A stretch of 25,672 nucleotides of DNA, taken from positions 280,083 to 305,754 of the forward strand of contig MU129987.1 in the NCBI GenBank assembly GCA_015039465.1, written 5' to 3'. This document shows positions 1 through 25,672 of the stretch, one piece after another. A program made the position numbers and the translations under genes. Within the stretch, counting starts at the first letter, position 1. Every line of letters begins with the position of its first letter. This stretch comes from Phlegmacium glaucopus. Taxonomy: Eukaryota > Basidiomycota > Agaricomycetes > Agaricales > Cortinariaceae. The notes beneath the pieces were generated by a model, which saw only the letters and a program-made list of their open reading frames with translations, had not been told where the DNA came from and searched no databases.

Positions 1-561
1 TTGCAGATACAGATAACCGGGAGTATCATTTAGCCGACTAGCACCGGTGAGTCGGTGTTGGCTAGTGAGTTTCGTATCACCTGGTAACAAAGGTGACTTA
101 TGGTCGGCTGAGCAGTTTCATTTCATCATAAGGGTTCACGAAGTAAGTAAAGGTTGAGTACTCATTTACGATTTTTCACTAGCTTTTGGGGCTTAAGTTG
201 GGCTAGTCATAAAACCTAGAATAATATATTTTCTTTCGTTCTCGAATGTACCTAATAGTCAGACCTGTTAAAATATGGTGCCACATGGACCTGGAACTAT
301 CAACTCGTGTATCTTCGGGCGGACTCCACTCTTGAACCGTCGCATTATTCTGCCGAAGCACTGCAGACAATCCCGAAACCCAAGCTGTTCGAAGAGGCTC
401 GAATTACATCCATAGCCTTACCTTTTCTACACAGCAAGTTAGCTTCCAAATCGCCGATGTTTTATCGATCTTTCTATTGCGTTCATTCTATTTTCAACTG
501 AGCCATCGAAGTATTTAATCTTTTTTATGGCTGTATTCCGGAAAGAAACGTAGATATGGAA
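1..561. other. Mirror-reversed block 1 (reversed, not complemented)
   Basis: Read from 561 down to 1 without complementing, this block makes sense. Positions 45-1 then equal 10811-10855 over 45 identical bases, inside an intron of the NLR gene. Positions about 60-105 resemble the small NLR exon at 10753-10803, but with an in-frame stop and mismatches. Positions 466-249 encode a peptidase exon, listed separately. In the given orientation neither strand yields a recognisable product. The right edge lies at or within a few bases of the transposon end at 562/563 and cannot be placed exactly. The mirrored sequence stops at the equivalent of 10855, and the DNA beyond the transposon resumes at the equivalent of 10857. 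The two flanks therefore belong to one NLR-paralogue intron interrupted by the transposon. Confidence 0.9.
249..466. pseudogene. Dipeptidyl-peptidase IV-like exon, readable only in mirror
   Basis: Reading right to left without complementing gives one open exon of about 72 codons. It is preceded by a TTTCTAG acceptor (474-467) and followed by a GTAAGC donor from 248. The translation contains YFVAAKPSIERHIFSIP and later YYAAKFSPQAGFYVLNY, which I recognise as the N-terminal beta-propeller of fungal S9B serine peptidases (dipeptidyl aminopeptidase / DPP IV type). The catalytic alpha/beta-hydrolase domain is not in the window. In corrected orientation the exon would lie on the plus strand, next to a broken NLR-paralogue exon that points the opposite way. 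This is only one internal exon, so whether the gene is whole beyond the window is unknown. The family call is from memory of conserved motifs. Confidence 0.75.
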
Positions 562-603
562 AGAGCCTGTTCAGTAACCGAACCATCAGCGAATTTGTGA
601 AAA
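562..603 (+). repeat. Left terminal inverted repeat of the Harbinger element
   Basis: The 18 bp from 562 match the right end perfectly as an inverted repeat. A second 14-bp matching block follows after about 10 mismatched positions. Confidence 0.85.
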
Positions 604-706
604 ACTGATGCGGAATTTTGTGACCAAATTGTGAGAAACGTGTGACCATGTCGCTACCGTCGCGTCGTTGCAATCTCGCCGTGAACGCCTCAATTCACGC
701 AATCTA

Positions 707-1909
707 ATGCCTCCCCGCGGTGCCGCCTGGTCTGATACGGAAACGAACACGCTCATCGGTTTTCTCGCATCACAGCTGCCTACAGTTGCAGACGGAACTG
801 GCTTCAAACCGATGGTTTGGAACGAGGCTGCTGTGGTCATCAATGCGTTAACCAAGGCTAAGGGCGGGGAGAAGACGTCCTCGAGCTGCAAAAGTAAATT
901 TGCAAGGGTATGGATATTGTCTGACTGTTTTTTTGCTTCTTTTGGTGATTTTTTTTGTGTATGTATATGTAGCTGAAAGAGACCTATAACGTCATTGTCA
1001 AAATCAAGGCTCAATCCGGATTCAAGTGGGATGACGAGAATGGAGCTGATATTGATGAAAGTACTGCGGAAGTATGGGCGGCTTTTGAAAAGGTATGTGA
1101 TTATGTTTTTGAATAGCTATTAGCTACTGAATGACCGAACTGCATTATCAATAGAAACACAAAGGAAGTGCCCCGTTTCGCAACAGGGGTTGGATTTGGT
1201 TCAACAAAGTCCAGCCTCTGATGCCAACAACTCCTCGCGGTGCGAATGTATATCGTGCTTCACAAGGTGTGCAGCCTGAGAGCCAGGAATCACTGCCTGA
1301 GGCTGGCTCACAGGATTCTGACCGCCCTTTCTCAAATTGGGTGCGTTTCCTCTGCGTCTATTGTTTCGCATCTACTCATGTCCTTTACAGTCCCCCTCAC
1401 CTCCTCCGGAAGATCATCAACACACTTCTGACGCTCACGAACCTGTTGATCAGGCCACGGAGACCCACCCACCTGTTCAGGTTCAAGCCACCCCGGCAGC
1501 TGGGTCAAAACGCAAACACTCAGCCCTTTCTTCCGACTATGCTGCATCCATGAAACGTGTGAAGACTGAGGTGCGACCATCAGGTGCCCTTGCGCTGCAT
1601 GGCATGAACGACAAGTTGGGAGATTTTACTGAAGTGTTTCGTGAAGTCATGACTGGTAAAAGGTCTGGTGTTATGTCAACTCCTCAGCGGAAGGCCAAGG
1701 CCATGCAGCGTGCTCAAGAACTCGAGACCACATTGTCGGATCGACGCCTTGTTGGTTTGATTGATTTATTTCGGGCTGATACCACTATGGCTGATACCTA
1801 TCTGTCTCTCTCTCGTGCTGGTATTCGTAAAGAGTGGGTCCATACTCATACCAAGCATATCAAGGAGGTTGAAGAGGGGGAGGAGGATGGGGAAGACTTC
1901 TATGCTTAA
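707..1909 (+). CDS. Myb/SANT-like DNA-binding protein of the Harbinger element (341 aa, 4 exons)
   Basis: Exons are 707-907, 973-1092, 1155-1340 and 1391-1909. The introns of 65, 62 and 50 bp all have GT-AG ends and all fall between codons. The first three exons make a Myb/SANT-like domain: an early tryptophan (AAWSDTETN), GFKPMVWNEAA, the linker CKSKFARLKETY spanning the first junction, SGFKWDDENGA, and a C-terminal PFRNRG. This matches the Myb_DNA-bind_3 type found in Harbinger second proteins. The last exon is Pro/Ser-rich, has a basic KRKHS patch that could be a nuclear localisation signal, and ends in an acidic tail. In this superfamily the protein binds element ends and helps import the transposase. 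The ATG at 707 is the first that opens the domain frame. The stop lies 86 bp from the convergent transposase stop. Confidence 0.85.
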
Positions 1910-1995
1910 TTACTTTAATATCGGATACATGATAGTCTACCATTTTTACGCTCATTACTTGTTGCTCATTACAGTAACTACATATATTGAATAGT

Positions 1996-3300
1996 TTATT
2001 CAAGTCCAAAACCCCTGGTTATAGCCTGATAGCTTGTCCACATAGCCTCAGCAATCTGATCCCTTCTCAAAGTTGCACGAACAATCTCTGCATGTCTAGC
2101 AGGGCCCTCTCCAAGGGCACCATACACACCAGGTGCAGGATCAAATGCTTCTTCAAACTCAAATATTTCATCTGGGTCATGGTCCCGAATAAAGTTATGT
2201 GTTGCAGCAAGTGCTGGTGGTATACGGGCTTGTACCTCCATGCTATATTCTGGTGGACGTGTAAGTATGGTGAAGCGGCGCTTGAGGACACCAAAAATTC
2301 GTTCAACAATATTCCGTGCTGATGCATGACGTAGATTGAAGAGCTCCTCCTTTGTGGTAGGTCTAAATGAAGTCAAGTCAGACCCAGACAGATTATTATT
2401 GTTGGAATACTCACCTCACACTTGCACGCCCCCATTCAGCAAGATGATATCGCACACCACGATATGGGATTAAAAGCGAGTCGCACATTCCAAAGCCTGC
2501 ATCTGCCAAATAATATTTCCCTGCAGGAATGGTGAGATCCGATAGCCGTGCATCATTGTACATGCTGGCATCTGCAGTGCAGCCATCCATTCCACTGAGA
2601 ACATATTGAAAGCGCATGTTGAAGCCACAGCATGCCAATGTATTTTGTGAGACTCCTCCCTTCCGATCTCGGGCAAGGTGGCGCTCATCAATGGCAGGGC
2701 AGCAGTTGATGTGTGTTCCATCCATGGCTCCAATGGCATCCTGGAAGAAAGGGAAGAACTTGGGGTTTGTTGCAATTTCGGATGGAACAGGATCATTGAT
2801 TGTTGGAAGCCGAACATATGTAGTATAGAATGGGGGCGAAGAAAGGGCATATAGAACAGTACAAAAAGATCTAAAAGGAAGGATTTTGGTTATTCCAATG
2901 GATAATATTGAGAGAGCAGAACTTGCTTGGATATTGTTGCATTAGCATGCTGGAATCTTTCTCCAACATGACGAATTGAGAGCCCAGTGACACAGGTATA
3001 GAGAAAAATAGCAACATGTTGTTCCAAGGATATGTAACGGGTTGATTTCACCCCAGCAGCACTCAAAGCTTCCACAAATGCAAGGAAAACATGGAGTCTC
3101 ATCCCGAGCTCTGACTTGATACGGTTGGGATGACCACTCATGAGCTCTGCAACCCACATTTCACCTGTTAGGGCAGAGGTGTGATATGGGGTCTTGTCAT
3201 AAAATGAACCCGCATACATTTGGGCAGCAAATGCCACAGCATTGACCACAAAAGCGGCAGCAGCAGCAGCAAGGCGCTGTGCTTCATGGGGTGGCCGCAT
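1996..3300 (-). CDS. PIF/Harbinger DDE transposase (398 aa, 3 exons)
   Basis: Exons read 3300-2927, 2870-2415 and 2362-1996. Introns are 2871-2926 (56 bp, with a GC donor GCAAGT and an AG acceptor) and 2363-2414 (52 bp, GT-AG). The joined frame is open for 398 aa. The DDE_Tnp_4 catalytic triad is visible: Asp175 in AMDGTHIN, Asp248 in LADAGF, and Glu297 in RNIVERIFGVLKRRF. An N-terminal helix-turn-helix-like part (VAIFLYTCVTGLSIRHVGERF) precedes the catalytic core, as in related fungal elements. The enzyme would cut and insert the element at TWA sites. The start at 3300 was chosen because it begins the conserved alanine-rich lead. An upstream in-frame ATG at 3375 lies inside the terminal repeat and is unlikely. 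With all catalytic residues and frames intact, the copy looks recently active. Confidence 0.88.
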
Positions 3301-3357
3301 CGTGATATAAGAGATTTGATTACATAATGTCACACACAGATCGAATTTGACGTGAAC

Positions 3358-3399
3358 TTTCACAAATTCGCCCACGGTTTTGGTTACTGAACAGGCTCT
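3358..3399 (-). repeat. Right terminal inverted repeat of the Harbinger element
   Basis: This is the reverse complement of the left terminus. The outer 18 bp are perfect, the middle has diverged, and the inner block is GCGAATTTGTGAAA. The next bases (TAATGACG) equal NLR-gene sequence at 10858 onward, which fixes the element boundary at 3398/3399. Confidence 0.85.
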
Positions 3400-3493
3400 T
3401 AATGACGTACCTGGGAGAGCTGGTCCATAATAGTCTTGGTTAATTTCAACACTTGTCCGAGCGTCGAAACTGTGCTCGTCACAGCGTCATTGC
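3399..3493 (-). pseudogene. NLR-paralogue fragment, forward part (exon 3 end plus donor)
   Basis: These 95 bases are identical to 10857-10951 in the NLR gene, in the same orientation. They hold the end of coding exon 3 (minus strand, ending MDQLSQ), its GTACGT donor and the first intron bases. At 3494 the match stops in this orientation but resumes exactly at the next base (10952) in the mirrored block, read from 3807 leftwards. This is part of a second copy of the NLR 5' region, or a duplicate of the same locus created by assembly. Confidence 0.85.
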
Positions 3494-3807
3494 CCGTGTT
3501 ATGTACCACGAGAAGGCTACGAGATGGCACATAGGGCCTGGTTGTAGCTAGCCAAGTTACTAGAGCACCCTGTCGTACTCCCCTTTCATCATCTGAACGA
3601 GCTTTTATCACGCATGGTTACAAACGATATACGTACGTGAGTACCACTTCTGGTAAAATGATCTGCGGTCAAAACTAGACTGCCTATTCTTCCCATAGGG
3701 GTAAGGACGGTTTTACTTTTATAAAGACAGAGCGTAAAGGCCGCTCAGCCAACTGCTATAGTTTTTTAAGTACCTTTTTCAACTGCTACTACAAGCAGCG
3801 GACAGTT
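3494..3807. other. Mirror-reversed block 2: NLR-paralogue continuation plus adapter-like tip
   Basis: Read from 3807 down to 3520 without complementing, this equals 10952-11239 over 288 identical bases, checked line by line. It covers most of NLR exon 3, the intron at 11096-11150 and part of exon 2. Placed after 3493 it continues the forward fragment with no base lost or gained. The remaining 26 bases (3519-3494 in mirror) are unrelated to the NLR gene and begin ATCGGAAGAGCAC, the core of the Illumina TruSeq adapter. The block is therefore a reversed contig extension whose far tip ran into adapter. Confidence 0.92.
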
Positions 3808-3832
3808 AAAAAAAAAAAAAAAAAAAAAAAAA
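3808..3832. other. 25-A run at the join of two mirrored blocks; likely gap placeholder
   Basis: There are exactly 25 A residues, bounded on the left by the NLR base equivalent to 10952 and on the right by the first base of an ankyrin codon in mirror. A biological poly-A tract at exactly this artefactual junction would be a coincidence. A 25-base placeholder written as A instead of N explains it better (inference). Confidence 0.75.
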
Positions 3833-4519
3833 GTCCGTCGCAGTCGCAGCATACTTCCAGTCCTCCACTAGTATTTCGACGATGAACTCTTCCCACGTCT
3901 ACACTTACGTGTCCCTCCTGTGATGCCTTTACGTGAGGTCCGTCGCAGTCTATTGCCAGTGCTTCGTTAGCACTTCGATGACGAACTCTTCCCCCGTTAA
4001 CACTTACGTGTCCCTCCTAAGATGCCTTTACGTGAGGTCCGTCGCAGCATACTTCCAGTACTTCGCTAGCACTTCGACGACGAACTCTTCCCCCGCTTAC
4101 ACTTACGTGTTCCTCCTTATCTACCCTCGCGTGAGGTCCGTCGCAGCAGACTTCCAGTGCTCCACTAACATTTCGACGACGAACTCTTCCCCCGTTTACA
4201 CTTACGTGTTCCTCCCCATATACCCTCGCGTGAGGTCCGTCGTAGCAGATTTCCAGTACTCCGCTAACATTTCGACGACGAACTCTTCCCCCGCTTACAC
4301 TTACGTGTTCCTCTTCCTAAGCCCTCGCGTGAGGTCCGTCGTAGCAGACTTCCAGTACTCCGCTAACATTTCGACGACGAACTCTTCCCCCGCTTACACT
4401 TACGTGTTCTCCCTCTTCTTAAGCCCTCACGTGAGGCTCGTCGTAGTAGATCTCCAGTACTCCGTTAACACTTCGACGACGAGCTCGTACCCCGTCTCTA
4501 CTCACGACGTCGTTGTACT
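3833..4519. CDS. C-terminal ankyrin repeats and stop of the NLR gene, in mirror
   Basis: Taking the plain complement from left to right gives the coding strand, starting CAGGCAGCG at 3833 and ending with TGA at 4517-4519 (228 codons). It encodes seven ankyrin units, mostly 33 aa, with the same core as the forward exon (EAIVKLLLEKGANVNAQG). The final unit is shorter and ends GAEMSAAAT. The forward exon breaks off at 7610 after the codons for GNAL, and this block supplies the expected continuation QAAS. Repeat starts are near 3833, 3938, 4037, 4136, 4235, 4334 and 4436. The 99-bp spacing is a multiple of three, which is why the wrong-way reading also stays open. The first unit is nearly identical to the unit at 7610-7714, apart from one substitution and a 6-bp duplication. 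Confidence 0.9.
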
Positions 4520-5412
4520 CCTTTTACTGTATAACGGAATGATAACTCGAATGAACCAGTGCAAACACAACCTTAACGTTCCAATTGAAGTTGACTTTAC
4601 CTAAATGTGAGTCATGGAGAAAATAGGTGAAATGGCGGTAGGGAAAAAAAAGTTAACGTGGTGTTCTTACGTTACAACTTTATAGTGTTCATATAGAACA
4701 AGTAAGCAATTCATCTAAGTTAAATAGAAAATAGAACTAGTATAGAAAACAAAAAGTAGGGACTCATTTTAATGTATTAGTGTGTGTAAATAAACGAAAC
4801 ACAAAAAATAAATTGTCAGAGTTGAAACTCAACTTCAACTCTGTCACTCATCTAATAGGTGATATGTTTTCAATCAAGATTATTAATAAATCTATATGGT
4901 AGAAAATCCATAAATAAATATGGTTGAAGGAGTTGAAACTCAACTTCAACTCTGTTATATGGTAGAAAATCTGAAATAAAATCAAGACGACGTTTTATGA
5001 AGTTGTCCAATACCCGGGACTTCTGGATAGTTGTTTGAGGTTGGGGTTTAGGGTTTAGTGGTTCGTAAGTTCAAGGATTCGAGACTCTACTACCTTCGTT
5101 GACCAACCTAATGGTTGATTCTTATACTTCTCACTACCCCAGGTTCCCAAGTACCTCTGTGTAACTTCCGTGATGACGGTACGGATCCGACATATCCCCA
5201 CGTACGACATGACATTGTCGATTACCGGCATTCCTATGTCACCAGGTTGCCGTCAACCCTGGGACAGTTGTCATAGTCACTATTTTAAAGGTTCACGGTT
5301 ACCATGTCAACCACCTGTTTTGTCGTTATTTACCGACAGTTACCTCCAAACCATCACGGTTTTTCGAACGTAACATTTTTTTAACTGAATCTTCATGGAT
5401 AGAACGAAGACA
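4520..5412. other. Mirrored AT-rich region without genes; short inverted and direct repeats
   Basis: No coding sequence was seen in any of the four reading senses. There are two near-identical stem-forming motifs, CAGAGTTGAA/TTCAACTCTG at 4817-4843 and a similar one at 4930-4954. Inverted repeats keep their stem-forming nature under mirroring. A 16-base direct repeat, TATATGGTAGAAAATC, occurs at 4893-4908 and 4956-4971 and brackets a 47-base insert that contains the second stem. This could be a small non-autonomous element with its target duplication, or the terminal region of the neighbouring hAT element. Confidence 0.5.
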
Positions 5413-7310
5413 TTAACATACACTCGCTCGGATTCCGCTACGAATTGGTCGTATTCGTGAGATTATCATAGGCCTTAATCTGATCGTGTAGAATTACTAT
5501 ATCATAGTGCAGGAGGTCTCTTTTATACAAGTTGTCGTTGACGTCTTGGACTCCATGCAACATTCCTCACTCAAATCCAAGTAATTTCCGTAGTGATTAC
5601 TTGAATGGACCTTATCTCTTTTACAGTACGTGTTCCGTTATATCTAATCCCTTAACCCTTACAGAAGGTCTGGTAGTATCCTCCCCGAACGTCCTGAGTT
5701 TCAGAAGTACACCATCAAACTTTATAAGGAACTCAAACAGTGGTTATTGAACCAGAAAGAAGACTATCACATTACACTTTAACTGGAAGAGTCCACTCGG
5801 TTCTCTCGAAGGTAACACTCTCCTTTCTCTACTGTTACTAACTCTACCTACATCTCCTACTCCAACCCACCTTCGTCACATTAAACAGACCATCATTCGA
5901 ACATCGACAAAGAACCTAGATAGATCTAGTGACTCCTCCTAACCTAACCTAAACGTTAGTAAAAAGTCCGGAAGTATGTACTATGACACCCCTTCTACTC
6001 GGTCGATGTGTTCCGGTTCGTTCCACCGGACGCCGGAGGAAGGGAAAGGCATAGTATCTGAAACACCGTGGTAACATGATCCACCCGGTGGTACGGTGTG
6101 GAAGTATCATATTCTTGAGAATCTTAATGTCTGGTTTTAGTAAAATAAGAAAATGTGTTGAAATTTTTGTGTTCGAGTAACCAGATTTTTCTGAGATAGG
6201 GGAAGCTATGAACATTGTTAGTGATGTTATGTACCCAGTTCTTGACACATCTCTAATTTACTCTTCTTCCAGTACGTTTTGTAATTGTTCTGAACGACGG
6301 GTACATATTTTCCCACTGAGTAGACTGACCATCATTATGAGTGACTCGAAAACCACACGGAGGTGTTCAGGTAGGAAGTCGAGACAACCCCGTCTTAGTA
6401 CTTCAAGTCGGTTCCAACTCACCTGTACAAGAAATTCAGGGGTCTTTTAACGTACCTGACAACTTTCGTAACCAAGAAAACAGGAGCTGTAAAGTCATCA
6501 ACGTCTTGTCTTTCGAAAGTCGGTCGACCGGTGTTCTCTATACCGATTAGTCGGTAGTCACAGTTCGAGTTCCCTGGTTTCTAGTACCAACGTAGGTTGT
6601 TTTAGTAGTTAGAGGAAACTCTTCAGATCCCGTACAGGACTCCATCTAATATGAAAAATCTTGAAGTAACCGTTCCATACCTATCCTTTTATTTTACATG
6701 AGTAGTAGACCACGCAACTACTGGTCACACAAAACTGTAGATCTTATTCGTAGTTACGTGTGGCCGCGAGAAACGACAAAAGGGGGGATTTACTCAGAAG
6801 TTCAACGAACTTGGTCCCAACGAACGCAACTCCTGAACTGGTTTAGTGTACATACTAAAAAGTTTCGACTTTTTGTAGTCGTCCACTTCAACACAGGTCA
6901 GTACGTTTGTTAACTAACTGATTGGAAAAACTGTCGACCATTTTACAAACGACTAAATAACTCACTGTTTGACTACGGTAGCAGAACTAGTCGTAGGAGG
7001 ACACGACGTCGTAGTAGTAACACCAGTACTGACTCTCCACGACATCAACTCAAAACCATCAAAGGTGACACTCTCCTGTGAAAGAACCGGAGGTAGAACC
7101 TCTAACGGGGTTAACGGAGGTCGTTGAATTTCTCTACCGTATTCAAGACCTTACTATGTTCTACACTGACCAAATGTCTGGAAGTACCGACGGTCCACTT
7201 AACATACTCCGTACGTGGTCTCTGCGTAGTTTTATTTAAGGAAGAAATCGTCGGACGTTAACATAAGGTAACTGGTAACACAGTAACAACCTGCGTAACT
7301 ATCCTGGGTC
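5413..7310. mobile_element. hAT-family transposase remnant, readable only in mirror
   Basis: Reading from about 7310 to 5413 without complementing gives a typical agaricomycete hAT transposase in several exons. Motifs in order: NASNNDTM (around 7298-7274), CMPHTIHLAAMK (around 7216-7181), ATTEMSRTKEPMLSTVHAIF (around 6500-6440), KLSEYYYQSDESPFYTWAA, then the C-terminal dimerisation region with SAVAVEHIFSGGRDTISL and IRVLMLVKHRLRLA (5549-5413). At least one intron is clear: GTAAGT after the IPG codons and CAG before the SAVAVE codons. The first two motifs lie in different frames, so the copy is frameshifted, or the extension sequence carries indel errors. No complete N-terminal zinc-finger domain was found. 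In corrected orientation the gene would be on the plus strand, pointing at the 3' end of the NLR gene. Confidence 0.85.
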
Positions 7311-7367
7311 CTCTGTAGATCCCTACATTTGTGCGATAAAAGTACCAAAGTGTTGGAAGTGTCATAT

Positions 7368-7512
7368 GAGCGTCTACGAGTGTCTATGAACGTCTATGAG
7401 TGTATAGTAACGCCTATGAACACCTAACAGTGTCCAGTAACATCTAGTAACGTATATGAGTGTCTAGTAACGTCTTATGAACGTCTAGTAACGTCTATGA
7501 ACGTCAGTAGTG
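7368..7512. repeat. Degenerate tandem repeat of about 10 bp
   Basis: Units of the type GTCTATGA or GTCTAGTA with two variable bases recur about every 10 bp. The tract lies in the mirrored block, upstream of the recognisable hAT transposase motifs in corrected order. No function is visible. Confidence 0.6.
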
Positions 7513-7609
7513 GTTGTAAGCGTAATAGTAAACGTCAACGGTCGACAAGAGCGTTAGAAATTTGTGTTGAGGTTGTTACCTGTGAGTACACTGACATAAT
7601 GAGTAGTGG

Positions 7610-8440
7610 GAGTGCATTTCCGTAGTGTCCTCCCTGTGCATTCACATCCGCACCCTTCTCAAGTAGCAGCTTTATGATCACCTCCTGACCTTCATACGAC
7701 GCTGCCTGGAGTGCATCCCCATTATAATATCCTTGTACATTTACATTTGCCCCCTTCTCAAGCAGCAGCTTCACAATCGCCTCGTGACCTTTAGATGATG
7801 CTGCATGCAGTGCGGTCCCATAGTATCCTTGCGCATTCACATTCGCCCCTTTCTCAAACAGCAACTTCACAATCGCCTCGTGACCTCCAGACGATGCCGC
7901 CTGGAGTGGCTCCCCACAGTATCCCTCTGCGTTCACATATACCCCTCTCTCAAGCAACTCTGTGGTCACATCGAAACCCGCATGGAGTGCGCTCCCCAAT
8001 TCTCCTTGTGTATTCACATTCGCCCCTTTCTCAAGCAGCAGCTTTACGATCACCTCGTGACCTCCAAACGATGCTGCATGGAGTGCACTCCCGAATTCTT
8101 CTCCTTGTGCATTCACATTCGCCCCTTTCTCAAGCAGCAGCTTTACGATCGCCTCGTGACCTCCAAACGAGGCTGCATGGAGTGCGCTCCCGAATTCTTC
8201 TCCTTGTGCATTCACATTCGCCCCCTGCCCAAGCAGCAGCTTTACGATCGCCTCATAACCTCCAAACGAGGCTGCAAGGAGTGCGCTCCCCAACCCTCCT
8301 TGTGCATTCACATCCGCTCCCTTCTCAAGCAGCAGCTTCACAATCGCCTCATGACCTCCAGACGATGCTGCTTGGAGTGCGCTCCCCAATCGTCCTTCTT
8401 TTGCATTCACATTTACCCCCTTCTCTAATAGATAATCCAA
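7610..8440 (-). repeat. Ankyrin tandem array (forward half), about 99-bp units
   Basis: About eight 33-aa units lie on the minus strand with the core EAIVKLLLEKGANVNAQG. Two neighbouring units (near 8020-8210) are almost identical, and a unit near 7940-8000 is degenerate (FDVTTELLERGVYVNAEG). The array continues in mirror at 3833-4519. High similarity between units suggests recent expansion or gene-conversion-like homogenisation, as is known for repeat domains of fungal NLRs. Confidence 0.85.
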
Positions 8441-11400
8441 CAATGGTTGCATTCCAGCTAGCGAAGCATAATAAAGAGGGGAACAAACTTTAGACTTGTC
8501 CATCGAGAGGTCCTGGCGATCCCACCCATGGGCATGGACATCGATATTGCATATCCGAATCCAATTTGTGAAGGAACCAGTCTCAGATGTGAACAGTCGC
8601 AAGATCAACTTCAGGACAGTGGGGCCCATTCCCCCAGATTTTGCATGGTTGATCCAATAATCAGCTGCATACTGTGCAAGTGGCGAGGAGACAAGCATAG
8701 CCTTGGTCAGGGGCAAAAATGAGTCGAACTGTAGGAGGTAGGCGACTGAGATTTCCGTGATCTTCGAATGAGAGGTTTCCTCGCTGATGCTGAAATCTTT
8801 CTCAACACGAGTAGAGAGGAGATACTCTTTGACAGAGAAATGAGAGAGCCTAATGGTACCTGTCTTCACCATCAGCAAAGACCGACATGCGGGACTAAGC
8901 CGACACTACTTACCTTCTGATTCGTCAACAAGACTTGAACACCTCACTAGCACATCCCGTGGATTAATATACCGTTTCGCCAAGTTAAAAACTGGACCAT
9001 CTTCCGAGGCGAAGTCCACTGTGATAGCTTCAGCAATTTCCGGGATTGTAATCGAACAGTTGGAAAAGGCCAGCCACTGCAGGAACGTCCTGGTGTCGGC
9101 ACGGTATTTCCTGTCAATCTCCTTCAAGATTCGCTTATAGGTTTCGTCTAGACCATCTGGCAGGTCCGCCAGTTGCTGCATTATTTCGTATGTGCTTGAA
9201 CATCTTTCCAATGCGGCAAGTTGCAATGCAACCCATCGAAACCTGGGAACAATATAAACTATAATCCTGTAATGGACTAGATGTTTAAGGTAAACGTACG
9301 ATCCGTCCGCACCCTCCGTCAATCCTGATTTAATAGTCTGTAGAGTTTCTTCATCGTACCCTTTGAATTTTGATTCCATCTGAAGGTTGAGATATGATAC
9401 AATGTCCCGGTTTGCAGTCGCCTCCACAACATTAACTGAATGCAGATCAAGCCGCCCGAAAACCGTCTCAACGTCTGGCAATGGCCGACTGGTGACCACG
9501 ATGTGAAGGTTTTCCGTTTTCCGATCTGTATCCATGACAAGTTCATTTACCCAATTCAGCGTTTCTTTGCGGTCGATACACTCGTCGAGAGCGTCAATGA
9601 CGATATATGCGTGCGAGAATCTGTCGAGAATATCTCGCAGAGTGTCCTGAAGTTGGCTGTCCAATGGCTGCTGAGCTCCGTACTTTCTGTGTAGATTTAC
9701 CAATTCTATGGGTATACCGCCGTAGCGCTTGTCAGAGAACTGTGAAATGAGGGATCGAATGAGCTTGTAGTGAGACTGTAGTTCTGTCTGAGAATCTCTT
9801 CCGTCGAAAAAGAAGTATGCGATTCCAAGTGACGGATCCAGCTGGAGGAGATTATCGACAATCGAAGAACTGAGAAGACAGGTTTCACTTGTACTGTTGC
9901 ACCGCTCATGAACAGGAGGCTCACCATAGAACACTTTTACCGCATCCGGCTATAGAATCATTGAACATGCCAATTCAAGTAGATGAACTGAGAAGCTTAC
10001 GCTTTCCCTTAACCCAAAGAAATCCGGGGGTTTCTCGCCACTTAAGGAATCGTTCGCTTTCAAGAAACCAGGAGCAAGTGTCGACTTGACGTTTCCTATA
10101 TGCTTCATTCCAATTCCGGGAGCTATCAGGTGGGGATAGCCAGCTATGAATTGTCTTGGCTGAGGAATTTGAACAAGTTATTTCGGATTATCGAAGATAT
10201 CTGGAACCGAAAGTACCTAGCGTGTCGTCCTTGATTGCCTCCAACCTCCGTCCTATACCGTGAATAAATTAGAGAAAGACTCGTCAAACGAGTAAAAGAA
10301 ATGTACCGGTCTCCTTCACTTGAGTGTTCGTATCAAGATGGAGTCTACTATAAAAGTCGTCCTTCAGAGCGGCACAGCTTTTTTGGCATTTATCAATACG
10401 CGATTTCAGATCACCGGGTATCTGGATTTTCACAGTTCGCCCTACGAACAAACCATCGTTAGAGTTGACAGGGTCAAGGAGGAGTGGGATCGAATTACCT
10501 ATCCAGGGCAATTTCGTATATTCATGAATGAGGGATGCAACCTGTAGTGATTGACGGCTGATCGCTTCGATGACATCGGTCGTGTGTGGGATCACTGGCA
10601 GGTCAGGAATCGCATTTGCAGTACCCAGCATTTCGCGCAAGGTGATGGCTAGTTCTCGTATGGATTCATCCTGGAGATCCGTCTCCTGTACAGCCTGCCC
10701 GAGGAATGACTTATTCATATCAGTTCGCTTGACATTTCGTAGGACGAGTCACCTGGTAAACAGTGGAAACAATGGTCCACGATGCTTTGAGTATCGGGTG
10801 TACCTGATCACCACGATCAGCCGATTTACTATGAGGGCCAATAGACATAGACGTTATTAATGACGTACCTGGGAGAGCTGGTCCATAATAGTCTTGGTTA
10901 ATTTCAACACTTGTCCGAGCGTCGAAACTGTGCTCGTCACAGCGTCATTGCTTGACAGGCGACGAACATCATCGTCAACTTTTTCCATGAATTTTTTGAT
11001 ATCGTCAACCGACTCGCCGGAAATGCGAGACAGAAATATTTTCATTTTGGCAGGAATGGGGATACCCTTCTTATCCGTCAGATCAAAACTGGCGTCTAGT
11101 AAAATGGTCTTCACCATGAGTGCATGCATATAGCAAACATTGGTACGCACTATTTTCGAGCAAGTCTACTACTTTCCCCTCATGCTGTCCCACGAGATCA
11201 TTGAACCGATCGATGTTGGTCCGGGATACACGGTAGAGCGCAACCTTCATCATTGACGATGGCTCGAACCAGCTGATTCCAAGAGGTGAATATCGATCGA
11301 GAGATTAATCACAAGACCAAGGCCCACATTGTATTGTCTGCATTCCATTCCCATTTGAGTACGGACGAGCTAGGCTTGGACTTTGTCGATTTCGCAACCT

Positions 11401-17055: not shown

Positions 17056-17127
17056 ATGCACGCAACCCTCGTCCGCCGTCCGCTTGGAGGTCTAATTCCT
17101 CCCAAAATTGCAACCCCAAAACTCGTC
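17056..17127 (+). pseudogene. Orphan first exon resembling mitochondrial ATP synthase subunit f
   Basis: ATG at 17056 opens 24 codons ending in a good GTAAGA donor at 17128. The peptide starts MHATLVRRPLGGLIPPKIAT. An N-terminal basic stretch followed by LIPPKIA(S/T)P is the start I associate with fungal F1Fo-ATP synthase subunit f (Atp17 type). The expected following exons were not found in the next 400 bp, before the duplicated unit beginning near 17430. Either the gene was cut by insertion of that unit, or this is a copied 5' fragment. The assignment rests on one short motif. Confidence 0.35.
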
Positions 17128-17429
17128 GTAAGAACCTTTTTTCCAATTCTCGTCACCTCGTTTCTTTCCCTGGTTTTTTATTGGGGTTTTCCAAACACGC
17201 TAGTCTGGTGGACCTGGTGCTAGACTAGGGCCTCTCGTAGACTTTTATCTAGCTCACTCCTCCTTTCCGCCCATTTCTTCTCATTCTTTCCTTGAATCCC
17301 GGAAGAAGCTCGCGTTGCGACCATACTCTAGCTTGAACCTTGGGCTGGTATCGCGAAAGAACTTACAAGAAGGATTGAAAGATTGAAAGATTGAGATTCT
17401 ACTACTTAAACTTTTCTTTTTCTTTTAGG

Positions 17430-18490
17430 TAGCTCATGAATCATGAAATTTACCAACCCCTTCTTCTCATGTTGCCGCCAGGGATCTCATCAAATGTACG
17501 ATGATTTTTATTCTAGGTCTTTTATTCAAATCTGCAATCTTTACCTTCCTCTCGATACCCTCAGCTTCAAGCGCTCACTCCACCTTGCATCATTGCCGTC
17601 ACAACACCTAGTCGTAAATGGCTAAGATCCACAATTCCGGACTTGCCATTGGATTTCGTCTAGCATACGTATGCAACCAATGAAATAGCTTAGCGAGGAT
17701 ACAGGCGTCGATAGGACAGTTAGAGGTGCACGCAACCAGGGCATGCTCCACTTGAAGGGGGCACAAAGAGATAGGATCAGAGAACACGGCCCCTCTTGCC
17801 AGTCGACCCTCCTCGCCACTCTCGACAAAGGAAAAAGCAAGAAAAAGCGCCCTTTAGCTCTCACAAATGGAAGTGTGTATCTATTTAATGTCTATGCATG
17901 ATATTGACGCGTTCTAGATGAGCTCGACTTGTCCTCATCTCTTCCTGTCACTCTAGAGGTAACCTTTCTCACGACCGTGTCCGCTCCAACTTGAATGTCA
18001 AAACCCTAACTCTTGCTTTCTCAGATATTAGAAGCTATGCGGACGTGTATCATCGAGCTCGAGGATGAACCGGCCCAACAGCCCCCCAATGAAACGTGCT
18101 CGAACGAGCGTTGCACCAAGCGCGCCTAACACGTCAATGCCAGCTGCTGCCAGACCTTCCGCTGCATCGATTAAAATGAATGAAAAGAAAAGAAAGATGC
18201 CGGTCAAGAATATATTTGATAGGTGCGATTTTTTTCTCTCTTGAGATTTCCTGAAAACTTTTTGTTCACTCAACCCTTTTAAGCTGAAGAAGGAATGCAA
18301 ATCCGAAGCCGTCAACTTTCAAGGCTCTCCCTCAAGTCCATCAGAATCGATGAGGTGTTATTCTGAGGCCGAATTTGACCTCCTGTTCAGCGGGAAAGGA
18401 CTTTTGATACAATCATTCATTTCGCAAGTCCACGATCATCCACCATTATGTTGATTTAGAAGCGCATTGTTGATCACTTCTGTAGAATTC
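17430..18490 (+). repeat. Duplicated unit, second copy mirrored at 24358-25460
   Basis: Long runs match the window end when that end is read backwards. Examples are TTAGCGAGGATACAGGCGTC with the following 30 bases, and GTCAATGCCAGCTGCTGCCA with its flanks. Similarity is clearly below 100% (scattered substitutions, small indels), so this is a real paralogous pair and not the same reads twice. The two copies differ in length near their 5' side by about 100 bp. Confidence 0.8.
18067..18349 (+). CDS. Possible start of an unknown spliced gene
   Basis: ATG at 18067 opens a basic, Ser/Pro/Ala-rich stretch (NRPNSPPMKRARTSVAPSAP, later KKRKMPVKNIFDR) that looks like a disordered nuclear protein N-terminus. 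A GTGCGA donor near 18222 and an AG acceptor near 18283 lead to LKKECKSEAVNFQGSPSSP. The mirrored paralogue lacks one C in the CCCCC run, which shifts its frame, so coding status is doubtful. No family is recognised. Confidence 0.3.
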
Positions 18491-18560
18491 CCAAGCCCAT
18501 ATCGAGTCATTCTTCGTGGATGAGCTCAAACCATTGAAAGGTAACTCGTGGAGCAGGAGC

Positions 18561-19050
18561 GGTGCATGTTAATTCCTTCCATGTTGACGGTCCAGGCCAT
18601 GGATTTATGGTACCAAATGCCTATCAAGGGAGAACGACAAGACTCGATCCGCCCGGCTTTGATGAGTGTAAAAAGAGGTCAATTGCCAACGTTGTCCGAG
18701 TCGTCGATCATCTCTGCCATTTCATCGACCTCGATCACAGAGACGCTACTTATCGCAGGTGTGTTGCGACCAATTCTTCATATTGTCAGCTCGTCAACTT
18801 ACTCTACTGTCCCTCGCGTCTTTAAGTTGAAGTTCAACAAAATTGAATTTCTCTTCCGAGACACCCTCTATCCTCCCTCTGTTCTCCATGCTATCCATGT
18901 ATGTGCTAGGTGACAAATTTTTACAATAGGTCGGCATGTGCTCGACGATTACTTTCATCTTCTTTTAGCTATCGGAAGCCGTTGCATCTGGTCCTTGGAA
19001 GACCAAGGGATAATTCAGAGGTTTCAAGCGTTTGTACACCAATTTCTGTA
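18561..19050 (+). CDS. Exons of an unknown gene
   Basis: Two protein-like segments are present. The first (about 18561-18758) reads HVNSFHVDGPGHGFMVPNAY and then RTTRLDPPGFDECKKRSIAN, and runs to a GTGTGT donor. The second (about 18930-19050) reads RHVLDDYFHLLLAIGSRC and IWSLEDQGIIQRFQAF to a TAA stop. Between them is at least one more possible exon, and one candidate intron would be only about 31 bp. The parts may belong with the basic segment upstream in one gene. I recognise no domain. Confidence 0.35.
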
Positions 19051-19280
19051 AATTATTCAAATAGCTTAAGTATTATAATTCGTACTTGGAGAGATGTCAT
19101 CGAAACAAGTAAAACATGAAATTCATTTTAATAACCGAACGGTGTGATCAAAACGAGTAAAACATAAAATTCATTCCAATAAATATGCATTTGATCCAGT
19201 TTCGCTAGAAAACTCGAACAAGTGGAAAAATGTATGGATAAATAAGCTGAATGTGGACTATTTCTCGGATCCTCCAGAAG

Positions 19281-22279
19281 TTAGGAATATAATTGCATAC
19301 CGTAGTGTTTTCCAGCTTCATCAAGCAATTCTACGTCATGTAAAAAATGGCCATGGTCCTCGACTGTTTCTCTAAACTGGATAACAATGTCATTCCTCCC
19401 TGGCTCAAACGAAAGGTAATCAGATTCAGAAGGACCAGGAATTGGATGGAGGGTTATATCATCAATCGTGAGTGACTCGGATGAGGGGTTAAGTTGAATT
19501 ATGGTTGATCCTAGCGTGACTTCGAGAGGCGCATCTTCTTTGCCGGAATGTTTGAGTCTCAGTACAAGACTTTGGCCAGATATTGGGGCGACGAATGAGA
19601 TTGATATTTTCTGCATCATCCCCAAGTCTAACTGGACCAGAATACATGTCAGAGCCGTCAGCATCCATGAAAATATATGTTGAAAAAGAGTCCAACTCGA
19701 GCCGAATTTCTTTCACGAATGTGATTAAATCATTATCGGGAGATTTTATAAATAGGGGATCATGGTGGATGACAGGTGGGCGTCCAGACCAATCCTGAGA
19801 TATCGAAGTCAGCCATGGTAAATCACAAATTGTAGCCTGAATCCAGTTGACATCGGAATCAGAATAACCGAAAGTGATGTGGATGATGTTTTTGTTTCCT
19901 TCCAGAGCATGCGAGTAGATTTCAAGTGGTGTACTAGTAAAAAGTGTGCTGAGATAGAGCCACTTTGACCGAGAGTACCTGCATTCGAAAAGAGTATCGT
20001 CATCCCAAAATTGATCGAACCGTCCCAATTCAGATCCACGTTTCAAACGGAATGCGGTATCCTCGAGCTCCTTGTCCATTCGTAGACGGATCTCATCTGT
20101 GACCAGAGAAGAATATTTCATCTCTCTCCTCAATTCGGATAGCACTTCTGAATTTGGTTTTTCAACCCCTTCAAAAAACTTGCCGATATATGATGCCCAC
20201 ACTCTCTGAACCATTATTCTTCTATGATCCCAATCATCGTCTTTGTCGAGGTCGGCTAACCTTTTCTCAGCTGCACGCATCTGGGGATTGAGTCTCTTCC
20301 AGCAATTGGCTCCCACTCCCTCGTCAATCTTTCTTTCTCCTCTACTCCATCGTTGCTAATCTGGTCCAGAACATCTTTAAATTTGTTCCAGAAAAGTTGT
20401 TCCCATTCCTTCACTTCGTATACCAGCAACAGCTCCATCAAGTACTGTTCCAAAATCAACAGCTTCTCCATCTCCCACTCTGGGAATTCTATTGCAGGCT
20501 TCTTTTCAACTGCTCGCTTGTTAACCCGATATTCCACTCCTATTTCGCCTTCGAACCTCTCCTTCACCTCTTTGGTCATCATTTCCATTCTCCGTGCAAT
20601 CCACTTGACACGCTTTTCATCCAGCAACCGTCGCTCTCTTTCAATTGACGACTGCATGAAATAATCACATAAAAGCAAAGATTCTTCGTTTTGCTCCTCC
20701 GTTTTCCCCTTCTCAACAGCTGTCTTCCAATTGTCTCCATTTTCTTCCTCCCTTAACCTCTGGAGCGCGCTCATGGTATCCGCCACTTTCATTGTCCAGC
20801 TGTTCTCTATAGTATATGCTTTGCTTACATCAGCAGCTCCTAGTCGATACTGGATGTGCTCTAAGATCGACCGATGATGTTTTCGAAGTGAATCCACATT
20901 ATTGCTATCGCTGGATACTGGGTCAGCTTTAGGATCAATTTCGGCCTGAATTTCCACTTCGAGTAGAAGGTGCCCAACATCAACGAGGGGTGCATCCGAA
21001 TTTGTTGAGTAGAAAGTGTCTATTTCATTGTCTCGGGTGTAAACTCGTGTCGTACGCTCCTTGTGATCGAAAACTGTGATATATAGAATCCGTTCTCCGA
21101 GTTTGTGCTTCTCCGCATTCTCAGGTTCATTGTCCCTATCCTCACGCCTATCTCCCCAAGGACCCCAACCCGCAGGTATGGATGGGCGTTTCCGAGTCAA
21201 AGTATAATAAAGAGAAAGGTCAGGGCTGCCGAATGGCTCAATGAGCCCAGCGAATGATGTGATGATCTTAAGTCTCGCGCTCGGGTGAGAGGCAGCACCT
21301 TGCGTTTTAAGATTTCTTCGTTGTCTTTGTTGCAAGTGGGAAGGGGTTCATGTTCGTCCAGTTCCAAAATAATCTCCAGTGGAGGCGCATCGTCCTTCTT
21401 CGGATTCCAAGCCCAAATACCCAGTCGCATTACAGAAAGCCCAGCTTCCAAGCAGAGCCAACTAATAGGACTGATTTTCGATGTCGAATTCTGAACGACG
21501 CTAAAACATCCAACGTACCCCACAACAGATGCTAGGATACCGATAAGGAGGAGGCATAGCAACAGCCATGTGAGTGCATCCGTTGGGTGTTTCTTCGTGT
21601 CGTGAGGCTTAACGGCCGCCTTGATATCTGTATCAGGCAGCTGGTCTCGTTTGACAAGGTATTGGTCGGAAAGAGTGGTTATTCGTCGTTGTATGAGTAG
21701 CTGAATGAGCGTGGCTGTGATGAAGCCTCCAGTAGCACGCAGAACGGGAAATAACCATCTTGTACTTTTCTGCAGGTTGTTGGCACCCCGATTTAAATAG
21801 ATATATGGAGTGATACTGAAAGCACATAGGAGCGCGGTTGTAGCCACCATTTTGATGTTCCAACCAGTGGACTTGTGGGATACCCCAGTTATTCGGTTTT
21901 TGTCAATGTTCAGTTCCTGGATCAATTCATCCATCCGACTTTCAATGATGTAGCGCCCTTTGTTCCCACCTTTACTAGTGTCAACCATTATCAATGAAAG
22001 GTTCTCTCCCTGTGGCTCGAATCCCATATTCCCAAGTATCTTTGCTCCTTCAATACCCCCGAATGAGAAGCAAGCGACCAACGTCTTGAATCCCGCTCTG
22101 ACCATCCCGAGACTTCCGAAGATAGACATAGGCGTTGCTGCTGCGTAAAGATATCCTCGTGTGAGTGCTGAGCTGACTTGAATCTCGCATTGCTCTGTAC
22201 CGAGCAGTGGTAGAAGCGCGGCGATATCTTGTATTCCGCCTATGAGAGTGGAACTGATTTCTCCACCACTGGATAACAT
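19281..22279 (-). CDS. Large multi-spanning membrane protein, fungal-specific, frame broken in three places
   Basis: Three overlapping minus-strand frames (22279-21197, 21335-20256, 20316-19489, then 19664-19281) read as one protein of roughly 970 aa. The N-terminal third starts MLSSGGEISSTLIGGIQDIA and has hydrophobic spans (MVATTALLCAFSITPYIYL; ALTWLLLCLLLIGILASVVG). The middle is charged and helical (VKERFEGEIGVEYRVNK). The C-terminal part is beta-rich (SISFVAPISGQSLVLRL, SEPSESDYL-like loop, HFLHDVELLDEAGKHYG). Frame changes occur near 21285, 20290 and 19600. The first could be a 32-bp GT-AG intron, which is unusually short. The others look like single-base indels. Similar long membrane proteins of unknown role are, from memory, common in Agaricomycetes. 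Function unknown. The ATG at 22279 is the first of the frame. Confidence 0.55.
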
Positions 22280-24357
22280 GGCAAAGATTTATTGTCGTAG
22301 GGAGTTCTTGATGAAGAATGGCCTAATAGATTGTGAGAACGGTGGCCTCGAGGCAACGTCGAACAATGTACCGAATACGTCTAGAGTACTATCCAAGTTC
22401 ATGAATCATGATGTCAATCTATTATTGTAATGAATGTTATTTTTATCACGATTGAAGCAAGATGGCAGTGAATTATAATAACAACGACTGTGGGAAGTCA
22501 GATTAGTGAGTGGATGAGGGATTCAAAATACACATTCTTTTTTCTGGGACTGAGAACATCAGAACGAAAGAATTCAGAACTGAAACGAATGAATTTTAAA
22601 GAGAGTTTAGTTTTGGAGGTGGGCGTTCTCGTGTATTAAGCGCGCGACGAGGACGATAAACAAATAAAGGACGAAAATAATAAATATATACCTGCTAATA
22701 GTGACTTGGGGGTGCCGGTGGAGAGCTATATGGTTGAACGAAAAACTCCACGAAGGCTCCGGGCCGATGGAGTGCCGGAGGCTAACCCCCAAGGTCAGAC
22801 CAGGTGCCTTAGATACGGCGTTTGTATTTGCGAGAGGGTGGCTGCTAAGTTCTGAAGGTGGTTGGAGGGCAATTTCGTCAAGCGAATACCAGTATCTGTG
22901 AAAGGAATCCGAAGACTATCTGCCCCATGGCTCTGACGACGTCCAGGAATTCCGTGGGGCCGCCAATAGGAAAACAGTTTCCCGTTATACGTGGGTAGCC
23001 AAGCTTGTTGGGTAATGAGTGTGGATGGTGCAGCGACTTCTTTCGTTGATGATGCTAGACGAGATGTGGTATCGTGTTTTAAAAGAGTGTATACACGAAA
23101 ATTCTGAAGGTGATGGAGTCGGAGTGCCTGCGGATGAGGTGGTAGTAGTGTGTTAAGGATAGATGAATTGCGTGACAAGTTAGGGACAGAAAGACCACTG
23201 TCCGCTAAATTATCAGCTGTGATGTTGCGACAGTTTTTATCCCACCCTTTTTGAAATGCCATGAATCCCAAGTGTCATCAAATATGATATCAATCACCCA
23301 TGAGGATGATGCGTCGACCCAGGATTGGATTGATAATTTTATGGGTGGTGCGGCTAGGGAAGATCCTCAGAAAGTAGACAAGTGTTCATGCCACCAATGA
23401 AAATTGTTGATGATGCTTGGGTTTGGGGTCTTGGGAATAAATGGGGATGGTGTAGTAAAAGGATGACGTGAATTGTGATAAGCCAGGTGAACGACTAGTC
23501 TCCTTACACTGTCGAAAGTGCCCCATTCGCATCCGAAAGCTCCAAGCCTGAAGCTTGAAGATCGATCTGGGCATCGGATGAACCATCATTTTGGGTACAT
23601 TTTGTTATCGAGGGTATCATTCAGCTGTTTAAAACGAAGGTGATGAATTTGTTTTGTTTTAAAGTCGTTCTAGGAGAATATTCACGTGTTCTGGAAGAAT
23701 TACTGGGGGGACTGGATTACATGCATAATGACTAGCGATGCGAGTAACCTTAGAAAGAATCTCAGGCCGAGGACAGAATAATACGTACCCAAAGTCTAAT
23801 TGGGGGGCTGAAAAAACTACACGAGTGGCACAAGGCGGTCGAACGAAGGGAGGACTGTGTCCTCGAGATCAGACAGGAGTTATCTTTGGAAAGTCTCTTG
23901 GCCATCTTCTTGAGGTCTGTTCGAAATTGATACCTGAAAAGGATACGAACTGAGAAGCGGAATCCAAGTCATTTACTCCATGAGGGCGTTGGTAAGAAAT
24001 GCTAACCGAGGAGAGTGTTAGCCCTCAGTTAAGTCTTGAGAGAGTCCTTCCATGCTTTGTGGATTAATAGGACGATGTGATTCAGACAAAGGATAAGAAT
24101 TCAAGTTGGAAGGTTTGTTTGTTACATGTTTGTATCAGTTTGTAGGCATGCTGCATGTGCCGCTTGTCCATTCAAACTCTGATGCCACCTCTCTCTCAAG
24201 CTCTCATCTCTGGCTTTGCAATGCTAGATGATGGTTTCTTGGCTTTCGATTGCCACCATCCTCAATTCTCAATTGAGTCCTACGATGTGCTCGTTGAATT
24301 ATAGAATCGGAGCTTGGAGTGGGAAGAGAGCAGCGGTTCTGCAGAGGTTGTTGGGTG
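22280..24357. other. 2.1-kb stretch with no confident gene
   Basis: A 158-codon minus-strand frame (23271-22795) has no recognisable motif. Beside it, a 61-codon frame (22792-22607) carries one hydrophobic span (YIFIIFVLYLFIVLVARLI). They could be pieces of a small membrane protein, but no splice model convinced me. The rest, up to the mirror boundary at about 24358, shows no gene, RNA or repeat I can name. Confidence 0.35.
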
Positions 24358-25672
24358 TCACTAGTTGTTACATGAGGATTTAGTTGTACTACCGTCTACT
24401 AGCCCCTGAACTCTTTATTTATTAACATACCTAGTTTTCAGGAAAGGGTAACTTGTCGTCCAGTTTGAGCCCGGAGTCTTATTGTGGAGTAGCTAAAACT
24501 ACCTGAACCCCCTCTCGGAACCTTGAACTGCCGAAACCTAAACCCAAGGAAGTAGTCGAACTTTCCCAACTCGCTTGCTTGTCAGGGAGTCCTTTAGAGT
24601 TTTCTCTTTTTTAACCGTGGATATTTTATGTAAGAACTGGCCGTAGAAAGAAAAGAAAAGCAAGTAAAATTAACTACGTCGCCTTCCAGACCGTCGTCGA
24701 CCGTAACTGCGCAGTCCGCGCGAACCGCGCTACGAGCGAGTTCGTGCAAAATAACCCCCGACAACCTCAGAAGTAGGAGCTCGAGTTACTATGGCAGGCG
24801 TATCGAAGATTATAGACTTTTTCGTTCTCAATCCCGAAACTGTAGCCGCGTCTGTGCCAGCACTCTTCCCAATGGAGATCTCACTGCCCTTCTCTACTGT
24901 TGTTCAGCTCGTATCTGCAATTTGTCGATGTGAGGAGATAAACGTTCTCGATTTCATGCAAAAAGGGAAACAGCTCTCACCGTTCCCAGCTGACCACTTC
25001 TCTCCGGCACAAGAGATTAACACGGGGGAAGTTCACCTCGTACGGGAGTAACGCACGTGGAGATTGACAGGATAGCTGCGGACATAGGAGCGATTCGGTG
25101 AAGTAAGCAACGTATGGATACGATCTAATTTAGATTCCCGTTCAGTCCTTATAGAATCAGTAGATGCCGATCCACTGTACTGCCGCTACTACGTTCCACT
25201 TCACTCGCGAACTTCAACTCCCATAGCTCTCGTTCTGTTTCCAACAGCTAAACTTAGCTCCTAGATTTTATTTTTACCGTTCGGTTTCAAGTTTTCTCTT
25301 TTGAACTCTTTTGCTTTTGTGTATGCCTGGAGTCTCTCCGTCTGTTTTTTAGATTATAAAGATGCGTTTAATCTTAGGTTATAGGGTTTTATCCGTGTTA
25401 CTTCCACGTACGTTTTAGATTGCTCATAGAAAAAATAAGCACTCGGTAGATTTTGTTTGTCTTTCCAAATCCGTAATCTTAGACTCGTCTTTTTACTTTC
25501 CGTGGTTGATATATGTACGGGCATTTCTTGGGAATATGCTATAGGTCTACGATCTCGTCTTATAGTTTTTTATAAGTATGTTCCTACCGGCCATTGAATG
25601 TGACACGTAGCTTGAAAGTTGCAAAGTTGCGAGTCGAGAGTTGTGACAATTACGTTGGACATTTTCCTGTCC
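24358..25672. other. Mirror-reversed block 4, paralogue of 17430-18490
   Basis: Read from 25672 down to 24358 without complementing, this block aligns with 17430-18490 in order and orientation. The match ends at ATTGTTGATCACT, equal to 18477-18490, and the next bases (24357 leftward) are unrelated, which marks the boundary. Its outermost 200 bases (25460-25672) have no partner in the window. In the given orientation the block holds only artefact frames such as 24791-25051. Confidence 0.9.

What the first reader, a model, noticed from the sequence alone, without database searches (positions are those of the whole stretch)
1..25672. Four blocks of the window are reversed without complementing
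Blocks 1-561, 3494-3807, 3833-7609 and 24358-25672 match known genes, or other parts of this same window, only when read right to left on the same strand. The evidence includes 288 and 45 identical bases to the NLR gene, a seamless ankyrin frame, hAT transposase motifs and a DPP IV exon. No recombination process makes mirror DNA, since strand polarity forbids it. The cause must be assembly, gap filling or file handling. Any annotation or homology search of these about 6 kb as given is meaningless, and ORFs there are spurious.
Basis: seen in the sequence. Interest (0 to 1): 0.95.

Follow-up and report, generated by a model that had tools for sequence, protein, structure and literature searches.

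The report
Gap fills written backwards in assembly
Four stretches of this mushroom's genome record are spelled back to front, each beside an assembly gap or a likely gap placeholder, most likely because a gap-filling program wrote real sequence in the wrong direction, so they are an error of the record rather than biology, and the same error is found beside other gaps of this genome.

Summary
Confirmed and refined. Window blocks 1-560, 3494-3807, 3833-7609 and 24358-25672 (5,966 nt) are reversed but not complemented, in place; reversed back, each rejoins its neighbour. The genome is Phlegmacium glaucopus; the window ends exactly at two N runs. The 25 A at 3808-3832, between two mirror blocks, are almost certainly a gap placeholder: runs of exactly 25 A occur 157 times on + and once on -. 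In 247 kb sampled, 537 of 537 exact mirror matches (22 nt or more) have a member within 4 kb of an N run or A25 run. Two mirror blocks from different gaps agree and indicate that the contigs on either side are true neighbours; the 2.9-kb transposon contig between them is probably misplaced. Best explanation: contig extensions by a gap filler, written backwards. PBJelly is likely: a JGI study that names this species patched its hybrid assemblies with it, and it counts gaps from 25 N. Unexplained: the placeholder is A, not N, and 40 of 60 sampled A25 sides show no significant mirroring. An artefact, with possible reach into sister assemblies.

The parts
1..560 (.). Mirror block 1: leftward extension of the transposon contig, borders the N run C5:278386-280082
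   Evidence: Reversed: 463 nt at 99% to C27:153284-153745, a stretch whose translation matches DPPIV_N, then 115 nt at 90% to the NLR 5' flank, ending in the TTA target duplication. As given: only itself.
561..3493 (.). Normal contig of 2.9 kb carrying a PIF/Harbinger-like transposon (element 562-3398, TTA at 3399-3401); probably misplaced in the scaffold
   Evidence: k-mer orientation score +464; inverted repeat 561-579 / 3382-3400; DDE_Tnp_4 E 6.8e-8
3494..3807 (.). Mirror block 2: rightward extension of the transposon contig
   Evidence: 3399-3493 is identical to 10857-10951 and the reversal of 3807-3520 continues it as 10952-11239, 288 of 288; the remaining 26 nt (3494-3519) match nothing tested
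3808..3832 (+). 25-A gap placeholder
   Evidence: Exactly-25-A runs: 157 on +, 1 on -; exactly 24: 0 and 1; exactly 26: 72 and 1
3833..7609 (.). Mirror block 3: leftward extension of the contig that begins at 7610
   Evidence: Reversed: 3,288 nt at 98.6% to C5:273627-276901 plus 489 nt shared with the mirror block C5:276902-278385; restores an open ankyrin frame across 7609/7610
7610..8878 (-). Ankyrin-repeat part of an NLR-like gene, normal orientation
   Evidence: Pfam Ank E 5.7e-60 for 7610-8521 minus
8906..9934 (-). NTPase part of the NLR-like gene, normal orientation
   Evidence: Pfam NPHP3_N E 3.9e-19
10811..11239 (.). Normal copy of the sequence mirrored in blocks 1 and 2, without the transposon
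   Evidence: Exact mirror and direct matches
24358..25672 (.). Mirror block 4: rightward extension of the main contig, borders the N run C5:305755-319199
   Evidence: Contig end plus reversed block aligns as one stretch over 1,607 columns (93.3%) to C5:414955-416509; as given the alignment stops at 24359

Best explanation
The four blocks are back-to-front copies of genuine fungal DNA, each beside an assembly gap or a likely gap placeholder, most likely put there by a gap-filling step that extended the contig ends and wrote each extension reversed but not complemented. Shown: the reversal, in place, at all four junctions; the position beside N runs or the 25 A; the same pattern at other gaps of the genome. 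Inferred: that a program appended them (a consensus in the opposite orientation complemented without being reversed, or a correctly oriented one reversed once), that PBJelly was the program, and that the 25 A were once 25 N. Also inferred: the 2.9-kb transposon contig was scaffolded between two contigs that are really adjacent, so that extensions from both sides ran past the predicted gap size and a placeholder was left.
For: Mirror identity and continuity. Window bounded by N runs at C5:278386-280082 and 305755-319199. Exactly 25 A: 157 on + and 1 on -, against 46 and 35 in the 80 prokaryote loci that a capped scan returned. 537 of 537 exact mirror matches (313 reverse, 224 complement) of 22 nt or more have a member within 4 kb of an N run or A25 run, while 675 of 1,790 ordinary repeats have none. 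Below the 1% control threshold: 10 of 60 sides of A25 runs, 3 of 14 N-run edges, 3 of 271 controls (1 of the 10 and 1 of the 3 are window blocks). Two extensions from different gaps agree: reversed block 3 ends in 489 nt that differ by 5 bases from the first 489 nt of reversed C5:276902-278385, and each then continues into the other's contig. Methods of a JGI study that names this species: ALLPATHS-LG, then PBJelly for hybrid assemblies (PMC7550596, passages). PBJelly: a stretch of 25 or more N is a gap, flanks are extended, some gaps are overfilled (PMC3504050, passages).
Against: The placeholder is A, while the PBJelly paper speaks of leaving N's. 40 of 60 sampled A25 sides do not pass even the 5% threshold, so either not every side was extended or not every extension was reversed. 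The passages read do not say that this genome was one of the hybrid ones. The reversed extensions have few indels (2 events in 3,288 nt, 0 in 982, 4 of 6-20 nt in 1,315), cleaner than I would expect of a consensus of raw long reads (recalled expectation). N runs can also be withheld stretches in this tool, though nothing suggests that here. No raw reads were examined.
Confidence: 0.92

Rival explanations
1. A file-handling or database error after assembly (for example in the copy searched here) reversed blocks of a finished sequence.
For: Nothing here compares letters with the deposited record; 25 A where N is expected suggests that some letters were altered at some point.
Against: The mirror matches found cluster at gaps and A25 runs, and the blocks rejoin their contigs at the junctions. 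The held contig has the length, 517,700, listed for a public protein of this species. Random reversal would not stop at gap edges.
Confidence: 0.05
2. The gap-filling account is right, but another gap filler or an in-house patching script wrote the extensions, not PBJelly (a variant of the best explanation, so the odds overlap).
For: The placeholder is A rather than N, and the extensions have few indels.
Against: The 25-base unit, flank extension and overfilled gaps fit PBJelly, and the pipeline names it.
Confidence: 0.25
3. Real mirror DNA made in the cell.
For: None found.
Against: Joining a strand in reverse polarity would need 5'-5' and 3'-3' linkages (established chemistry). In the 247 kb sampled no pair of mirror-matching stretches of 22 nt or more has both members more than 4 kb from a gap or placeholder.
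Confidence: 0.002
4. Chance or low-complexity resemblance.
For: Ankyrin repeats match each other in many registers.
Against: Exact mirror runs of 1070, 1019, 790, 512 and 288 nt.
Confidence: 0.001

Closest known systems
Overfilled or partly extended gaps of PBJelly (English et al. 2012, PMC3504050, passages seen)
   Same: Extensions from one or both contig ends, a remaining gap, 25 bases as the gap unit, extensions that exceed the predicted gap
   Different: Extensions here are reversed without complement, and the remaining gap is written as 25 A
Ordinary inverted misassemblies
   Same: Wrong direction of a block at a contig junction
   Different: Those are reverse-complemented and stay readable on the other strand; these are readable on neither strand
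PIF/Harbinger DNA transposon (the probably misplaced contig)
   Same: Terminal inverted repeats, TTA target duplication, DDE_Tnp_4 transposase
   Different: The left target duplication is visible only after block 1 is reversed

Membership tests
PBJelly gap-extension product | Sequence added at contig ends facing a gap and continuing the contig | tested here: met
   All four junctions are continuous after reversal; the blocks border an N run or the A25 run
PBJelly gap-extension product | 25-base unit for a gap | tested here: met
   Exactly 25 A: 157 + and 1 -; exactly 24: 0 and 1
PBJelly gap-extension product | Remaining gap written as N | tested here: not met
   Written as A at 3808-3832, while 7 longer gaps in C5:200001-380000 are N. 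So it is said to work like such a product, and PBJelly is named as likely only
PBJelly gap-extension product | The assembly was patched with PBJelly | tested here: inconclusive
   The Methods passage covers the hybrid assemblies of the study; which kind this genome is was not seen
PBJelly gap-extension product | The program is known to emit reversed extensions | not testable with these tools
   No report in the listings; the source code is not held
Inverted duplication or inversion | Reverse-complement relation to the source | tested here: not met
   Longest reverse-complement match inside the window is 19 nt; junction continuity needs plain reversal
PIF/Harbinger transposon | Terminal inverted repeats and 3-bp TWA target duplication | tested here: met
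   19-nt inverted repeat; TTA on both sides after reversing block 1. That TWA is the family's signature is recalled
PIF/Harbinger transposon | DDE transposase of the DDE_Tnp_4 type | tested here: met
   E 6.8e-8 in 1996-2376 minus; the 2 other frames of the element tested had no hit

The most novel reading that the evidence does not exclude
A whole class of public hybrid fungal genomes from the same ALLPATHS-LG plus PBJelly pipeline carries mirror-written extensions at gap edges, recognisable by plus-strand runs of exactly 25 A, so that many contig ends per genome hold real but unreadable sequence, including true contig joins that could be recovered.
Probability: 0.4. Interest if true: 0.6.

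Novelty: not a real feature. Interest (0 to 1): 0.4.

Why it matters
Mirror-written sequence escapes routine checks: homology searches and read mappers do not see it on either strand (blocks 1 and 4 as given found only themselves), while ORF finders still list ORFs in it (226 stop-free codons in block 3 as given). In this genome it hides an NLR array junction and probably leaves a transposon contig in the wrong place. A simple screen (plus-strand runs of exactly 25 A, then comparing reversed flanks with the genome) could look for it in other assemblies, and reading the blocks backwards gives real sequence and true joins.

Tried and rejected
Illumina adapter idea: the reversed 26-nt tail of block 2 contains 13 nt of an adapter (recalled). 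Genome-wide the mirrored 13-mer occurs 3 times (2 + and 1 -) and the plain one 0 times; about 2 are expected by arithmetic, so the idea is dropped.

No other fungal genome is held.

Annotated spurious gene: the longest ATG/GTG/TTG ORF of block 3 as given (223 aa) has no relative at E 1e-3 (5,452 candidates), so there is no sign that it was annotated. It has one Pfam match, DUF1331 at E 0.0029, below that family's cut-off.

Indels as proof of raw long reads: not borne out; in reversed block 3 the 32 differences are clustered and mostly transitions (24 of 32) with 2 indel events.

Overlaps across the placeholder: in 28 sites the left and right flanks share a mirror match at 4 (L032, L039, L040, L051) and a direct match at 5 (L028, L032, L046, L051, L052), so this does not separate the two.

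A first k-mer scan was trained on sequence that included the window; the numbers used are those. Negative stretches away from gaps exist (for example C5:253181-253848 and 373479-374532), so that test alone does not prove a block. Of five reversed-block translations given to Pfam, two had hits and three none. PMC5689209 was looked at in passages for a known PBJelly fault and showed none.

Full report
WHAT WAS CHECKED. The window is C5:280083-305754 of a 60.5-Mb genome in 259 contigs. A protein of the window matches Phlegmacium glaucopus BYT27DRAFT_6863229 at 99% over 54% of the query, from a contig of 517,700 bases, which is the length of C5. Taxonomy: Agaricales, Cortinariaceae. That this is the species called Cortinarius glaucopus in the paper, and that it is mycorrhizal, is recalled.

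THE REVERSAL IS REAL. Exact mirror matches inside the window reach 288, 55, 48 and 45 nt, while the longest reverse-complement match is 19 nt. In 207 kb of the genome exact mirror runs of 1070, 1019, 790 and 512 nt involve blocks 3 and 4. In local comparisons with that sequence, blocks 1, 2 and 4 as given had 0 hits besides themselves and 4, 4 and 2 hits when reversed; block 3 as given had 29 hits besides itself, of which the 8 displayed lie in itself or in the neighbouring mirror block, and 70 when reversed. In the whole genome, block 4 as given hits itself only and the first 700 nt of its reversal give 37 matches; block 1 as given hits itself only, and its reversal gives 6. Of five translations of reversed blocks, one of block 1 matches DPPIV_N (E 1.5e-8), one of block 3 matches ankyrin repeats (E 6.8e-48), and three have no hit.

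IT IS REVERSED IN PLACE, NOT COMPLEMENTED. Block 2: 3399-3493 equals 10857-10951, and the reversal of the block continues it for 288 identical bases; a last 26 nt match nothing tested. Block 1: only the reversal puts TTA on the left of the transposon to match TTA on its right; leaving the element out then gives the sequence of the copy at 10850-10865. Block 3: reversal turns a frame that meets stops into a continuous ankyrin frame across 7609/7610. Block 4: contig end plus reversed block aligns as one stretch to C5:414955-416509 (1,607 columns, 93.3%), whereas as given the alignment ends at window 24359.

IT SITS AT GAPS. The window begins and ends at N runs, so blocks 1 and 4 border gaps (the tool also writes N for withheld stretches; I take these as gaps). 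Blocks 2 and 3 flank exactly 25 A. Runs of exactly 25 A occur 157 times on + and once on -, exactly 24 A 0 and 1 times, exactly 26 A 72 and 1 times. The 26-A runs are about as many as chance A neighbours of a 25-A unit would give (inference). The 80 prokaryote loci returned for the same pattern show no such strand bias, 46 against 35. So the 25 A are almost certainly a placeholder written in the direction of the record.

IT IS NOT CONFINED TO THE WINDOW. Another mirror block, C5:276902-278385, borders the N run on the left of the window. In the 247 kb sampled (about 94 kb of it within 1.5 kb of an N run or A25 run) there are 537 exact mirror matches of 22 nt or more (313 reverse, 224 complement); 537 have at least one member within 4 kb of an N run or A25 run, 525 within 1.5 kb. 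Of 1,790 ordinary repeats, 675 have none within 4 kb. These pairs are not independent, since repeat arrays count many times. I fetched 28 A25 sites, in list order, besides the 2 in C5:200001-380000, so 30 of 158. By a k-mer orientation test with held-out controls, 10 of 60 A25 sides and 3 of 14 N-run edges fall below the 1% control threshold (control 3 of 271), and 20 of 60 and 4 of 14 below the 5% threshold (14 of 271); one-sided Mann-Whitney p 0.022 and 0.0035. The window's own A25 run gives 1 of the 10 and 2 of the 20; its block 4 is 1 of the 3; block 1 does not pass (p 0.077). So mirroring is frequent at these places but far from universal in this test. At site L051 the left flank (471 nt) mirrors the right flank at 95%.

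WHAT THE BLOCKS SAY WHEN READ CORRECTLY. Reversed block 3 (3,777 nt) is 3,288 nt of the contig ending at C5:276901 (32 mismatches, 2 indel events) plus 489 nt of ankyrin repeats. Reversed C5:276902-278385 is the same 489 nt (5 differences) followed by the start of the contig at 287691 (8 differences in 982 nt). Two extensions from two gaps thus agree that these contigs are neighbours about 0.5 kb apart. The scaffold puts an N run, the 2.9-kb transposon contig and its two extensions between them. I infer that this contig is misplaced and that this is why the extensions overshot. Reversed block 1 joins the NLR flank to a DPP IV-like stretch of C27, which has no N run or A25 run in the 1.6 kb fetched there; around the join its letters resemble both sources, which I read as a blended consensus.

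MECHANISM. Passages of the 2020 study say that JGI assembled Illumina reads with ALLPATHS-LG and patched hybrid assemblies with PBJelly (PMC7550596). Passages of the PBJelly paper say that a stretch of 25 or more N is a gap, that flanks are extended when a gap cannot be closed, that N's are left if a gap is only reduced, and that some gaps are overfilled (PMC3504050). The anatomy fits, with one misfit: A instead of N. A reversed extension arises if a consensus in the opposite orientation is complemented but not reversed, or if a correctly oriented one is reversed once; the data do not separate these. The extensions have few indels (block 4 has 4 events of 6-20 nt against its nearest copy), so they come from fairly accurate sequence; since mirror sequence cannot attract reads, they were probably accurate before they were written (inference).

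PRINT. The listings showed no report of reversed, uncomplemented gap fills; a paper using other words, or in a subscription journal, would have been missed.

VERDICT. It is an artefact of assembly with genuine sequence inside it, of no biological novelty, and of practical importance if other assemblies share it.

Noticed in passing
C5:276902-278385 (left of the window): A fifth mirror block, 1,484 nt, bordering the N run on the left; reversed it runs from the ankyrin array into the contig that starts at about window 7610.
   Followed up: yes
window 562-3398 and 10850-10865: PIF/Harbinger-like element with TTA duplication; the copy of the site without the element reads GACGTTATTAATGACG, i.e. 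keeps both TTA, as an excision footprint would (or the site had two TTA before).
   Followed up: partly
G000:C27:153284-153745: Stretch of a DPP IV-like gene that reversed block 1 copies at 99% over 463 nt before switching to the NLR flank; no gap or A25 run in the 1.6 kb fetched there, so the join may be a chimera of the local assembly.
   Followed up: partly
C5:371329-373334, C5:22040-26423, C5:368688-369178 and C5:418581-419071: Other ankyrin or NLR-flank copies of the same family on this contig; tandem ankyrin arrays probably caused assembly gaps.
   Followed up: no
window 21197-22279, minus strand: Membrane-protein-like ORF with no Pfam domain over its cut-off and 327 relatives; of the 120 listed, the four whose source names an organism are three of Phlegmacium and one of Piloderma.
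   Followed up: no
G000:C82:25316-25342 minus and C158:2920-2971: The only exactly-25-A run on the minus strand, and a place where runs of 24 T and 26 A adjoin.
   Followed up: no
C5:350931-350955: An A25 run with no mirror signal on either side, 397 bases before an N run; not every placeholder has a mirrored flank by this test.
   Followed up: partly
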